Shown: piece after piece, positions 4,746 through 14,695 of the stretch
Layout of the letters: the number at the start of each line of letters is the position of its first letter
Numbering within the stretch: position 1 is the stretch's first letter
Source of the DNA: Lachnospiraceae bacterium UBA6403
GTDB taxonomy: Bacteria; Bacillota; Clostridia; Lachnospirales; Lachnospiraceae
Reading direction: 5' to 3'
Length of the DNA stretch: 15,036 bases
Assembly: GCA_002437435.1 (NCBI GenBank)
Contig: DJPV01000024.1
Location: 1 to 15,036, forward strand
Made by a program: the position numbers and the translations under genes
The notes under the pieces: model-generated
The model's database searches: none
Seen by the model: only the letters and a program-made list of their open reading frames with translations
What the model was told of the DNA's origin: nothing

Positions 4746-4793
4746 TTGTCGAACTGACGACATACAGAAAAACAGCATAAAATTAATTAACCG

Positions 4794-4827
4794 GCAGGCG
4801 GTCTTATAACGAGACCGCCTGCTTTTT
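4794..4827 (+). terminator. Intrinsic terminator, copy A
   Basis: A perfect 11-bp stem (GCAGGCGGTCT 4794-4804, AGACCGCCTGC 4812-4822) with a TATAACG loop is followed by TTTTT. It ends transcription before the TetR promoter. It is nearly identical to the terminator at 6389-6425. Confidence 0.9.
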
Positions 4828-6297: not shown

Positions 6298-6388
6298 TAA
6301 ACATAGTAAAGCAGTTTCGAAAAATGAAAAAAATTAAAATTTTGAAAGAGAATCAGCAATATTCAATATAGCAGATTGATATCATCAG

Positions 6389-6425
6389 GCAGGTAGTCTT
6401 ATAACGAGACTGCCTGCTTTCTTTT
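6389..6425 (+). terminator. Intrinsic terminator, copy B
   Basis: GCAGGTAGTCT (6389-6399) and AGACTGCCTGC (6407-6417) form an 11-bp stem with one T-G wobble and the same TATAACG loop as copy A; TTTCTTTT follows. It closes the TetR/hydrolase unit. Similarity to copy A continues into the flank (TATGCAA). Confidence 0.9.
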
Positions 6426-10939: not shown

Positions 10940-12643
10940 ATGTTAAAAGGAATAGGCGGCTCAGCCGGTTATGGCATCGGAAAGGTTGTCATCATCAGTG
11001 ATGGCAAACCGGAATATAAGCAGCATACAGTAACAGATACAGATGCTGAACTTCAGAGATTTGAGAATGCTATGGAAGTCTTTGTTGAAAAGACCCAGAA
11101 AATGGCAGATGCAATGAAAGAAAAGGTTGGAGAACATAATGCGGAGATTCTGGAAGGACATATCGTTCTGATGAGCGATCCATTTATGCAGGATCAGGTC
11201 AAGGAGCTGATCAGCAATGGCGAATGTGCAGAAGCAGCTGTTGACAGTGTATGCGATATGTTCGTATCCATGTTCTCTCAGGTAGATGATGAACTGACCA
11301 GACAGAGAGCAACTGACGTAGGAGATATCCGTGTCCGTATGCTTAAGATCCTGACCGGTACACCGGATATCAATATCGGTGATGTTCCTGCAGGTACAGT
11401 GATCGTTGCGAAGGATCTGACACCATCCATGACAGCAGGAATCGTAAAGGAAAATGTAGCAGGTATCATTACCGAGATCGGTGGTAAGACTTCTCATTCA
11501 GCTATCCTTGCAAGAGCACTTGAGATCCCGGCGGTACTTAGTGTAGATGGTATCGTAGATCAGGTGTCCGATGGTATGATGGCAGTTGTAGACGGATGTG
11601 AAGGCATCTGTATCCTAGAACCTGCAATGGACGAGATTGCAGAATATGAGACAAAGCGTGCAGACTATCTGAAAGAGAAGGAACTGCTTCAGATTTACAG
11701 AGGAAAAGATACAGTAACTGCTGATGGAACAAAGGTTGCTTTATATGGCAATATCGGCAATCCGGAGGATGCCAAAGGTGTTGTGGCAGCGGATGGTGAG
11801 GGTGTAGGCTTATTTCGTACCGAGTTCCTGTTCATGGGAACAGACAGACTTCCAACAGAGGACGAGCAGTTTGAAGCATATAAGGCAGCAGCCGAGACGA
11901 TGCAGGGCAAGGAAGTTATTATCCGTACACTGGATGTCGGCGGTGATAAGAATATTCCATATCTGGGATTGGAGAAAGAAGACAATCCGTTCCTTGGTTT
12001 CCGTGCAGTCAGATATTGTCTGAAGAATGAGGACAGCTACAAGGTACAGCTTCGTGCATTGCTTCGTGCGAGTGCATTTGGCAACATCAAGATCATGGTT
12101 CCGCTTGTGACCTGTGTAGATGAGATCCGACGGGTAAAAGAACTGGTAGCGGAACTTAAGAAGGAGTTAGATGTAGAGGAAATAGCATATAACAAGGACA
12201 TTCAGGTCGGCGTTATGATTGAGACTCCTGCGGCCAGTCTGATCGCAGATCTTCTGGCAAAGGAAGCTGATTTCTTCAGTATCGGTACAAATGATCTGAC
12301 CCAGTACACAATGGCGGTTGACAGAGGAAATGCTAAGGTTGCGTATCTGTATTCTGCATACAATCCTGCTGTTCTTCGTTCTATGAAGAATGTTATTGAA
12401 GCAGGAAATGCAGCAGGCATCATGGTAGGTATGTGTGGTGAAGCAGCCGCTGATCCATTACTGATCCCACTTCTGATCTCCTTTGGACTGGGAGAGTTCA
12501 GTGTATCAGCAACTTCTGTTTTAAGAACCAGAGGCACGATTGCCAAATGGTCAAAGGCAGATGCAGATGCTCTTGCAGCAAAAGCATTGTCCTTATCCAC
12601 AGAAGCCGAGGTGGCTGAACTGTTAAAAGCCTCCGCAAGATAA
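10940..12643 (+). CDS. ptsI: PTS enzyme I (phosphoenolpyruvate-protein phosphotransferase)
   Basis: Starts the PTS chain: autophosphorylates from phosphoenolpyruvate and hands phosphate to HPr. From ATG at 10940 the protein is 567 residues, close to the family norm of about 570; the frame extends to a TTG at 10877 inside ptsH, but its extra residues are not family-like and enzyme I proteins typically begin close to a GIGGSAGYGIGKV-type strand. Visible sites: phospho-His in GGKTSHSAILA at 186; PEP/Mg segment RTLDVGGDKNIPYL near 329-342; NPFLGFRAVR; IGTNDLTQYTMAVDR near 448-462; active-site Cys in GMCGEAAADP at 499. The ribosome site is poor (GGGG, then GTAGAAG), so coupling to ptsH is likely. 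It is the last gene of the operon; the foldback element starts 10 nt after the stop. Confidence 0.95.
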   Translation: MLKGIGGSAGYGIGKVVIISDGKPEYKQHTVTDTDAELQRFENAMEVFVEKTQKMADAMKEKVGEHNAEILEGHIVLMSDPFMQDQVKELISNGECAEAAVDSVCDMFVSMFSQVDDELTRQRATDVGDIRVRMLKILTGTPDINIGDVPAGTVIVAKDLTPSMTAGIVKENVAGIITEIGGKTSHSAILARALEIPAVLSVDGIVDQVSDGMMAVVDGCEGICILEPAMDEIAEYETKRADYLKEKELLQIYRGKDTVTADGTKVALYGNIGNPEDAKGVVAADGEGVGLFRTEFLFMGTDRLPTEDEQFEAYKAAAETMQGKEVIIRTLDVGGDKNIPYLGLEKEDNPFLGFRAVRYCLKNEDSYKVQLRALLRASAFGNIKIMVPLVTCVDEIRRVKELVAELKKELDVEEIAYNKDIQVGVMIETPAASLIADLLAKEADFFSIGTNDLTQYTMAVDRGNAKVAYLYSAYNPAVLRSMKNVIEAGNAAGIMVGMCGEAAADPLLIPLLISFGLGEFSVSATSVLRTRGTIAKWSKADADALAAKALSLSTEAEVAELLKASAR

Positions 12644-12652
12644 GAGAGGGTT

Positions 12653-12879
12653 ATGTCCATTCTATCGTGGACTGACAGCATATAAAACAACCATCCCTGT
12701 ACAGCATACCTATTATTTCGCAAGTCGTTTGCACTCTATTTCAACGCAACGGTACTAAGAGCTTCTTGCCCATGGCAACTCGCTAAGGACCGGCGTTGAA
12801 AAAGGCTTGCTACATAATAGTATACTATACAGGGATGGTTGTTTTTATATACATTGTTAATTCACGATAGAATGGACAT
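12653..12879. repeat. Nested foldback element or structured RNA
   Basis: About 227 bp fold as concentric arms: ATGTCCATTCTATCGTG (12653-12669) with its perfect complement at 12863-12879 (17 bp); an 18-bp arm at 12684-12701 with 12828-12845 (AAAACAACCATCCCTGTA); CTATTAT with ATAATAG and GCAAG with CTTGC further in; TTCAACGC (12740-12747) with GCGTTGAA (12792-12799) plus CGGT/ACCG; and a central TTGCC-CAT-GGCAA (12767-12779) loop. There is no ORF. On the plus strand the 18-bp arm ends in GTTTTTATATA, so it should also terminate the ptsI transcript. It could be a MITE-like insertion or a structured RNA such as a 6S-like molecule; neither is proven. Confidence 0.65.
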
Positions 12880-13184
12880 GAAAAGATTAGGCTAACGCAG
12901 ACAGTCTTTAAAAGTGCATTATTTTCCGAGGCCGTTTTCTGCATATTTGAACAACGCTTTAAATGTCAAGAATTAATATTTGCTAAATTTTAGGAAAATG
13001 TGTAGAGGTTTTCACGAAATTCTTACGAATATAAATTTACACTGGAATTTTCTGGTTGAAATTTGGTAATATTTTATTATAGAAGTCTGAAAAGGGAAAT
13101 GAATTTGAGCCTTAAGGGTAGGACGAGATTTGGCACATATCGACAGTTGGAGATGTTTTCAATAAGTAGAGAGGAAGATTAGTT
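12880..13184. other. Non-coding stretch before the small basic protein
   Basis: AT-rich, with no convincing ORF and no terminator. A weak promoter for the next gene may be TTGAAA (13056-13061), 16 nt, TATAGA (13078-13083). That leaves a leader of about 95 nt containing a purine-rich segment; nothing else is recognisable. Confidence 0.4.
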
Positions 13185-13487
13185 ATGTTTGAAAACGAAA
13201 AAGTGAAACATGTAAAATTTGGTGAGGGAAACGTAGTTGAATGTGATGGTACACACATCCGTATTTTATTTCAGTGTGAGAATATAGAAAAGACTTTCAC
13301 TTATCCGACCGTATTTGAGAAATTTGTAAGATTTGACAGTCAGGACGCACAGGACAAGGTCACAGATGATCTGAATACCGCAAAAGAGGAAGCCGCAAAG
13401 CTGGAAAATCTGAGAAAATTATTCATGGCTGAGCAGGCAAAGAAGCGAAAGCTGGAGAAAGCAGCCAAGGCAGCAAAGAAAAGATAA
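13185..13487 (+). CDS. Small protein with beta-barrel-like N-terminus and basic tail
   Basis: A 100-residue protein of uncertain family. Residues 5-55 (VKHVKFGEGNVVECDGTHIRILFQ, then KTFTYPTVFEKFVRF) look like the small barrel found in several clostridial nucleic-acid proteins and helicase tails, where xHxxFGEGxV starts the fold. Residues 60-100 form a charged helix ending in a Lys/Ala-rich run (about 12 of the last 20 residues are Lys or Arg), which suggests nucleic-acid binding. GAGG lies about 11 nt before the ATG, and a terminator follows within 10 nt of the stop, so it is a single-gene unit. Function is inference only. Confidence 0.75.
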   Translation: MFENEKVKHVKFGEGNVVECDGTHIRILFQCENIEKTFTYPTVFEKFVRFDSQDAQDKVTDDLNTAKEEAAKLENLRKLFMAEQAKKRKLEKAAKAAKKR

Positions 13488-13670: not shown

Positions 13671-14229
13671 ATGGATAACGAAATTGTATATTCCTCCAAG
13701 GCAACTGATCAGAAAGTACAGTATGATGCCAGTGCCAAGCGGCTGCTAGGGCAGAAGATCATACTGGCGCATATACTGATACTCTATGTACGGCTGCGTG
13801 ATCGGATTGGCGAGTGAGATTCCGCCAAAGGAAGAAAGATATGAACTGCATCGATTACTGGGAGCGTTACTATCGCAGACAATGACGGCAGAACAAAAAT
13901 TGAAGCTTATGAAACAGGAGTATGACATACCGGTAGAGAGGCACGGTATAAGAGATGGGGTGAAAATCATGTGCAATCTGAGTGAAGGCGTAGAAGAAAT
14001 GGGATATGCCAAGGGCGAAGCCGCTGGCATAGCTGCTGGAAGGGCAGAAGGCGAAAAAATAGGCGAAGCACGAGGTAAGGTCATTGGAAGATCTGAAGGA
14101 AGATTAGAAGGAAAATCGGAAGAAAGAGCTGATATTATCCTGAAAATGCATAAGAAAGGCTATTCCTTAGAGCAGATCATGGATGTAACCGAAATGAGTG
14201 AAGCTGAAATCAAGGCAATTATAGGATAA
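13671..14229 (+). pseudogene. Rpn/PD-(D/E)XK nuclease-transposase family, internally deleted
   Basis: The start, MDNEIVYSSKATDQKVQYDASAKRLL-type (ATG 13671, with AAAGGAG upstream), is the signature N-terminus of a large Lachnospiraceae family of PD-(D/E)XK 'Rpn-like' proteins of about 300 or more residues. After about 36 residues it runs into unrelated frame and stops at 13817. The C-terminal part is present in another frame from about 13786: IPPKEERYELHRLLGALLSQ, EYDIPVE, MCNLSEGVEE, a Gly/Ala/Glu-rich repeat (GRAEGEKIGEARG) and the terminal GYSLEQIMDVTEMSEAEIKAI. The catalytic core between is gone, through an out-of-frame deletion near 13770-13790. It cannot encode an active nuclease. A C-terminal fragment could start at ATG 13786, but no ribosome site supports it. 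Confidence 0.8.
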
Positions 14230-14312
14230 AGACATAGACGGAACAGATAATGTGTATATCTTTTGGCGTGTATGAAATACATTAGACCATAAAAGCTTTC
14301 CATAGTAAAAAG

Positions 14313-14376
14313 CTGCCATACATTAATGGATTAATTTTTTTTAAGGTATTATCTCCACTATGTATGGCAGTTTTTT
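14313..14376. terminator. Bidirectional terminator
   Basis: CTGCCATACAT (14313-14323) and ATGTATGGCAG (14360-14370) form an 11-bp stem around a 36-nt AT-rich loop. T6 follows on the plus strand and CTTTTT on the minus strand. It serves the nuclease pseudogene and the HxlR gene, whose stop codon overlaps the T run. Confidence 0.8.
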
Positions 14377-14695
14377 ACATTTGTTTATAGGCGTTACCCC
14401 ATTCAACCATAGAGTCAAGGATTGGCTTTAAGGTCTGTCCGAGGTCGCTTAACGCATATTCTACACGTGGCGGAACTTCCGGATATACGGTTCGGGTGAT
14501 CAGCCCATCTTCTTCCATTGAGCGAAGGCTGTCGGTCAGAACCTTCTGGCTGATACCGGTCAGATCGCGTTTGAGTTCGTTGAATCGCCATGGACGCTGT
14601 AACAGATTTCTTATAATAAGCAGCTTCCATTTACTTCCGATCAGAGCAACGGTCGTTGCAACCGGACATTCAGGTAATTCTTCTTTTGTTAACAT
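14375..14695 (-). CDS. HxlR-family winged-helix transcriptional regulator
   Basis: A 106-residue HxlR/MarR-like regulator. CPVATTVALIGSKWKLLIIRNLL (about 10-32) includes the conserved N-terminal Cys and GSKW motif; RFNELKRDLTGISQKVLTDSLRSMEEDGLI (about 36-65) is the helix-turn-helix; EYALSDLGQTLKPIL ends the wing and dimer helix. Many relatives sense electrophiles or redox stress through that cysteine, as YodB and HypR do, so a similar role is possible. ATG at 14695 is chosen because AAGGAGG lies 7 nt upstream; the upstream frame to 14731 has no such site. It is divergent from the gene at 14945 and probably represses it and itself. Confidence 0.92.
   Translation of the reverse strand: MLTKEELPECPVATTVALIGSKWKLLIIRNLLQRPWRFNELKRDLTGISQKVLTDSLRSMEEDGLITRTVYPEVPPRVEYALSDLGQTLKPILDSMVEWGNAYKQM

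What the first reader, a model, noticed from the sequence alone, without database searches (positions are those of the whole stretch)
12653..12879. Nested 227-bp foldback element directly after ptsI
Perfect 17-bp outer arms and 18-bp second arms, further complementary segments (CTATTAT, GCAAG, TTCAACGC) and a central hairpin give one long concentric fold with no ORF. It starts 10 nt after the ptsI stop. Terminal inverted repeats suit a MITE-like element; bulged stems and a terminal U run suit a structured RNA. A TTCGCAAG motif at 12717-12724 faintly recalls 6S RNA, but I do not rely on it.
Basis: partly seen in the sequence, partly recalled or inferred. Interest (0 to 1): 0.7.

Follow-up and report, generated by a model that had tools for sequence, protein, structure and literature searches.

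The report
Foldback terminator element after ptsI
Just after a sugar-transport gene of a Coprococcus-like gut bacterium lies a 227-base non-coding sequence that folds back on itself, probably a small mobile-type repeat that now serves as the operon's stop signal for transcription; it looks like a neat example of a known kind of element rather than a new system.

Summary
The foldback is real. Outer arms (17 bp) and second arms (18 bp) are perfect at the stated places, and the fold is far from chance (z -12.2). It lies just past an intact ptsI in a Coprococcus-like window. The T run is not terminal: it follows the second arms, inside the outer arms, on both strands. The second arms therefore look like a bidirectional intrinsic terminator with a 126-nt structured loop, the only terminator-like stem found between ptsI and the next gene. 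A similar AACAACC...GGTTGTTTTT hairpin occurs in 3 of 10 relatives, one of them chosen for an earlier hit. If transcription stops there, the outer arms never pair in RNA, which points to DNA-level terminal repeats. In one relative (G155) a different nested foldback follows ptsI and belongs to a dispersed family (45 match rows at about 40 places). No second copy of the window element was found where searched, and no direct repeat flanks it (best 6/9). The host genome is not held, so copy number and covariation remain untested. Rfam gives no support for 6S. Best reading: a MITE/REP-like foldback now acting as the ptsHI-operon terminator. Modest interest.

The parts
10940..12643 (+). ptsI (enzyme I of the sugar phosphotransferase system), intact, last gene of the run deoR-pfkB-PTS EIIABC-HPr-ptsI
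   Evidence: Pfam hits PF05524, PF00391, PF02896; by eye the C-terminus ends where those of the seven relatives fetched do
12653..12669 (+). outer left arm, ATGTCCATTCTATCGTG, candidate terminal inverted repeat
   Evidence: 17/17 complementary to 12863-12879
12670..12683 (.). diverged spacer between outer and second left arm; its six substitutions against the other arm are all transitions, plus a 3-nt gap
   Evidence: read from the arm-against-arm alignment
12684..12701 (+). second left arm, AAAACAACCATCCCTGTA; on the minus strand this is the 3' half and start of the T run of the terminator
   Evidence: 18/18 perfect; minus-strand terminator-like stem with tail TTTATATG
12702..12827 (.). 126-nt structured loop with further partly paired arms (CTATTAT/ATAATAG, GCAAG/CTTGC, TTCAACGC/GCGTTGAA) and an apical hairpin
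   Evidence: 12703-12826 folds at -37.8 kcal/mol (+) and -44.2 (-)
12828..12845 (+). second right arm, TACAGGGATGGTTGTTTT, continuing TATATACA: plus-strand terminator stem and T run
   Evidence: only terminator-like stem found in 12644-13184; similar hairpins in 3 of 10 relatives
12846..12862 (.). diverged spacer between second and outer right arm
   Evidence: arm-against-arm alignment
12863..12879 (+). outer right arm, CACGATAGAATGGACAT, candidate terminal inverted repeat
   Evidence: 17/17 complementary to 12653-12669

Best explanation
The 227-bp sequence is a non-coding foldback element of the MITE/REP-like kind that sits directly behind ptsI and now supplies the 3' end of the ptsHI operon. 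Shown by sequence: intact ptsI, two concentric perfect arm pairs, a T run right after the second arms on both strands, and no other terminator-like stem found before the next gene. Inferred: RNA polymerase leaving ptsI transcribes the second arms, they pair across a compact folded 126-nt loop, and the UUGUUUUUAUAUA tract releases the transcript near 12845-12850; read from the other side the same arms stop antisense transcription. Since the transcript would end before 12863, the outer 17-bp arms would not pair in RNA and are best read as DNA-level ends (terminal inverted repeats) from the element's insertion. Insertion by a transposase acting in trans is inferred from anatomy only.
For: Exact arms and extreme fold. 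Under one loose rule (stem of 7 or more, 5 T in 8) the plus strand of 12644-13184 has no terminator-like stem with a loop of 40 or less and, with loops to 140, eight solutions that are all the second-arm stem; by the same rule (loop to 40, 200 nt) 22 of 30 relatives have one after ptsI, so one is expected here. AACAACC...GGTTGTTTTT hairpins: 3 of 10 genomes, 11 rows for 7 sites, against 0 of 10 for the pattern read backwards; G019 was put in that set because of its earlier hit, so 2 of 9 without it. That G019 hairpin shares 19/19 bases with 12835-12853. Perfect pairing is bunched: runs of 18 and 17; longest run of 18 or more in 1.5% of 20,000 shuffles, second-longest of 17 or more in 0.005%, as expected if ends and terminator stem are kept while the rest decays. 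No sign of selection for the plus-strand fold: minus folds better (-115.5 vs -105.8) with similar G-U counts (4 vs 5). Analogue: in G155 a different 181-nt nested foldback starts right after ptsI; 45 match rows at about 40 places in that genome, seven of the others about 100 nt long and the rest shorter pieces. A published MITE, QMITE2, has similar make-up: TIRs 23-29 bp, core 113-145 bp, predicted fold -113 (Figure 2 legend of PMC10969869, passage seen).
Against: No second copy where searched: the exact 16-mer gave 25 stretches in the genome contigs and 1 in viral contigs, none with a second arm within 3 mismatches in the stretch fetched; other viral-contig patterns gave 0 or 36 single-arm stretches without the element; plasmids and phages none; 3 of 397 family genomes and 1 of 295 order genomes gave short matches that are not elements. 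The genome searches scored only two candidates per genome. No target-site duplication (best 6/9, GAGAGGGTT/GAAAAGATT). No partner transposase was identified. The standard scan (loop 3-8) finds no terminator here; a 126-nt loop is very long for an intrinsic terminator, and termination is untested.
Confidence: 0.5

Rival explanations
1. A lineage-specific, single-locus structured 3' UTR: an unusually long terminator hairpin of the ptsHI operon (possibly also an mRNA-stabilising or RNase III-processed 3' end), with no mobile past.
For: Position right after the last PTS gene; the only terminator-like stem found there; no other copy found; no duplication.
Against: An outer perfect 17-bp arm pair lying outside the terminator has no role in this reading; a nested palindromic layout is what foldback repeats look like, and a dispersed repeat of that layout sits at this very site in G155.
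Confidence: 0.3
2. A functional trans-acting or riboswitch-like structured RNA using the whole 227 nt.
For: Strong fold with internal loops; a promoter-like site inside, TTGAAA-16-TAGTAT at 12796.
Against: No Rfam match at gathering score and only a 19-nt match to a human lncRNA family (E 2) when the limit was raised to 5; T run inside rather than at the end; minus strand folds better than plus; promoter-like sites 4 found where 2.0 (sd 1.2) are expected; no relatives found for covariation.
Confidence: 0.1
3. An invertible segment: the 17-bp arms are recombination sites and the segment, with an internal promoter-like site, flips.
For: Perfect inverted arms 193 bp apart in an intergenic region; promoter-like site inside.
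Against: The whole segment is palindromic (72% over 245 columns), so flipping changes little and leaves the terminator in place; no recombinase family hit among the ten window proteins scanned, but other ORFs of the window were not scanned.
Confidence: 0.05

Closest known systems
[quoted passage not shown] QMITE2 of Coxiella burnetii
   Same: Size class (50-500 bp), terminal inverted repeats, intergenic, very stable predicted fold (passages of PMC10969869)
   Different: No second copy, no target-site duplication and no partner transposase shown here; GC equals the window's (0.40 both), not AT-richer
Terminator-like dispersed repeats such as SPRITE of Streptococcus pneumoniae
   Same: Repeat-like sequence with a rho-independent-terminator-like structure (named in passages of PMC10969869)
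   Different: Sequences not compared; SPRITE is described among chromosomal repeats found bunched with BOX and RUP, this is one copy as far as seen
The 181-nt nested foldback after ptsI in relative G155 (L108)
   Same: Same place, nested foldback, T run at its end; dispersed family in its own genome
   Different: No match of the window element to it was seen (one search did not list G155 among its hits; one search shows no hit to L038); it looks built of two dispersed pieces in opposite orientation
6S RNA
   Same: Long rod-like fold (resemblance recalled)
   Different: No Rfam match; T run inside the element

Membership tests
MITE | Terminal inverted repeats | tested here: met
   17/17 at the ends
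MITE | Short (50-500 bp) and without a transposase gene | tested here: met
   227 bp; longest start-to-stop ORF within or nearly within is 27 aa
MITE | Flanking target-site duplication (said to wane over time, PMC10969869) | tested here: inconclusive
   Best 9-mer 6/9 at the given ends; boundaries shifted by up to 3 gave nothing convincing
MITE | Multiple dispersed copies in the genome | not testable with these tools
   Host genome not held; within the window only a 17-nt, 88% match besides the element itself
MITE | Autonomous partner with matching ends | tested here: inconclusive
   26 stretches with the exact 16-mer, none with a second arm within 3 mismatches; partners with altered ends not excluded
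Intrinsic (rho-independent) terminator | Stable stem followed at once by a T run | tested here: met
   16-bp stem then TTTATATA on plus; on minus a stem of up to 24 pairs then TTTATATG
Intrinsic (rho-independent) terminator | Short loop, usually under about ten nucleotides (recalled) | tested here: not met
   Loop 126 nt, itself folded; standard scan finds none
Intrinsic (rho-independent) terminator | Transcripts end there | not testable with these tools
   No RNA data
6S RNA | Match to the Rfam covariance model | tested here: not met
   No match at gathering score, none at E up to 5

The most novel reading that the evidence does not exclude
The second arms form a terminator whose 126-nt loop is itself a folded RNA domain, so folding or binding of that domain could open or close the stem and gate read-through from the PTS operon: a sensor carried inside a terminator loop, possibly domesticated from a mobile foldback.
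Probability: 0.06. Interest if true: 0.65.

Novelty: new member of a known kind. Interest (0 to 1): 0.25.

Why it matters
If right, it is a clear case of a foldback repeat taking over the 3' end of a central sugar-uptake operon in a common gut genus; the G155 analogue hints that the spot behind ptsI has accepted such repeats more than once. It adds a candidate repeat family for Coprococcus-like genomes, not a new mechanism.

Tried and rejected
Rejected: 6S or another Rfam RNA. Rejected as relatives of the element: the three family hits (L029, a terminator hairpin downstream of an ABC-transporter ORF; L030, a promoter-like stretch between two ORFs; L031, a one-arm match with no partner in the stretch printed, not checked for coding), the order hit (G627; no partner arm in the stretch printed), and the near-identical L092/L103 (23 nt, no second arm in the stretch printed).

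Led nowhere: finding DNA of a close relative. ptsI in 397 family genomes is at best 68% identical. The protein database has copies at 98%, 93%, 88-89% and 82%; of the 120 listed (of 6,889), the three whose source names an organism say Coprococcus and are 82% identical. A smaller family draw gave DNA matches in 26 of 331 at 1e-60, all 72% or less; the order draw gave 0 of 392 at 1e-130; the relatives draw 1 of 145 at 1e-100, G096 again. The draws overlap and their counts cannot be added. Genus draws of G096 and G164 gave 0 of 3 each for the element. A viral-contig search with ptsI found no relative. Searching the protein database for stray ORFs across the element or its right edge found no candidate. 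Literature: searches found no paper; some searches listed general ones, of which passages of PMC10969869 and PMC2267715 were seen. Of PMC2229807 only the listing was seen (one search failed on a bad term and was not repeated).

Full report
What is there. The window looks like a Coprococcus-like Lachnospiraceae chromosome piece (inference): the listed ptsI relatives are 98%, 93%, 88-89% and 82% identical, and the three that name an organism, all at 82%, say Coprococcus (120 of 6,889 listed). Genes run deoR, pfkB, a PTS EIIABC, HPr, ptsI. ptsI ends at 12643, and by eye its C-terminus ends where those of the seven relatives fetched do, so the feature lies outside the gene.

The foldback. The fold is -108.9 kcal/mol for 12640-12890 against -52.2 (sd 4.7) in 200 shuffles, and the most stable of 296 sampled stretches of the window starts at 12651. 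Among 702,581 bases of other loci (L108-L119 left out, some loci overlapping), 8 perfect inverted repeats of comparable arm length and 0 concentric pairs were found. In an arm-against-arm alignment (84 of 126 columns identical) the matches are bunched into runs of 18 and 17: a longest run of 18 or more came up in 1.5% of 20,000 shuffles, a second-longest of 17 or more in 0.005%.

The T run is in the wrong place for one long RNA. GTTGTTTTTATATA follows the second right arm, with the outer right arm still downstream; on the minus strand the second arms are likewise followed by GTTTTATATG. A loose rule (stem of 7 or more with 3 G-C, 5 T in 8) finds nothing with a loop of 40 or less on the plus strand from ptsI to the next gene at 13185; with loops up to 140 it finds eight solutions, all of them the second-arm stem. 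The standard scan with loops of 3-8 finds no terminator. By the loose rule with loops to 40, 22 of 30 relatives have a terminator-like hairpin within 200 nt after ptsI; some of these may lie inside a following gene, and 8 have none. A closing motif AACAACC...GGTTGTTTTT occurs in 3 of 10 relatives (11 rows, 7 sites; five sites in G245, four of which read on both strands), 0 of 10 for the pattern read backwards; G019 was in the set because of its earlier hit. That G019 hairpin shares 19/19 bases with 12835-12853. So the second arms most likely are the operon's bidirectional terminator with a 126-nt folded loop. If so, the outer arms would not pair in the transcript and are easier to read as DNA-level ends.

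Mobile or not. The layout (17-bp ends, no ORF of note, intergenic, nested palindrome) suits a MITE or REP-like repeat; QMITE2 is described with a similar make-up and a similarly strong fold (figure legend in PMC10969869, passage seen). The best circumstantial support comes from relative G155: a different nested foldback of 181 nt starts directly after its ptsI. It has 45 match rows in that genome, itself included; five places are listed on both strands, so about 40 places, seven of the others about 100 nt long and the rest shorter pieces; only 40 of 66 candidates were scored. Five other genomes had none. Against mobility, no second copy of the window element was found: 25 stretches in genome contigs and one in viral contigs carry the 16-mer, none with a partner arm; 36 viral stretches with a second-arm 15-mer hold no element; four more viral patterns gave 0; no hit in plasmids or phages; 3 of 397 family genomes and 1 of 295 order genomes gave short matches that are not elements, with two candidates scored per genome. 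Flanks show no duplication beyond 6 of 9. The host genome is not held and no draw held a close relative, so these absences do not decide copy number in the host.

As an RNA gene. No Rfam family matches at gathering score; at E up to 5 only a 19-nt match to a human lncRNA family appears. The minus strand folds better than the plus strand (-115.5 against -105.8) with similar G-U counts, so there is no sign of selection for the plus-strand fold. Covariation could not be tested because no homologue was found. An invertible segment is possible but unlikely, since the segment is nearly its own reverse complement (72% over 245 columns).

Verdict. A real and striking foldback; most likely a MITE/REP-like repeat serving as ptsHI-operon terminator. 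The terminator part is better supported than the mobile part. Known kind, modest interest.

Noticed in passing
window 4786-4825 and 6381-6420: Two terminator-like hairpins 85% alike with an identical 9-nt loop (TTATAACGA) and, by eye, one compensatory stem change; no exact copy of the core 15-mer in the 130 loci held. Possibly a dispersed hairpin repeat of this genome.
   Followed up: partly
window 13672-14229: Looks like a decayed remnant of an Rpn/PD-(D/E)XK-type transposase with a shortened N-terminal part (resemblance recalled; the 147-aa ORF 13786-14229 has no Pfam match).
   Followed up: no
L108 (G155), directly after ptsI: A composite nested foldback of a dispersed repeat family (45 match rows, about 40 places); pieces of about 100 nt and about 50 nt occur singly elsewhere in that genome.
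   Followed up: partly
window 14305-14378: Another long-armed inverted repeat (19 nt, 95%, 36-nt loop) with a T run in its right arm, between the transposase remnant and an HxlR-type regulator gene, probably an ordinary bidirectional terminator.
   Followed up: no
G245 genome (L121, L124-L130): Five AACAACC...GGTTGTTTTT sites, four matching on both strands, with 14-34 nt between the fixed ends; suggests a favoured bidirectional terminator type.
   Followed up: no
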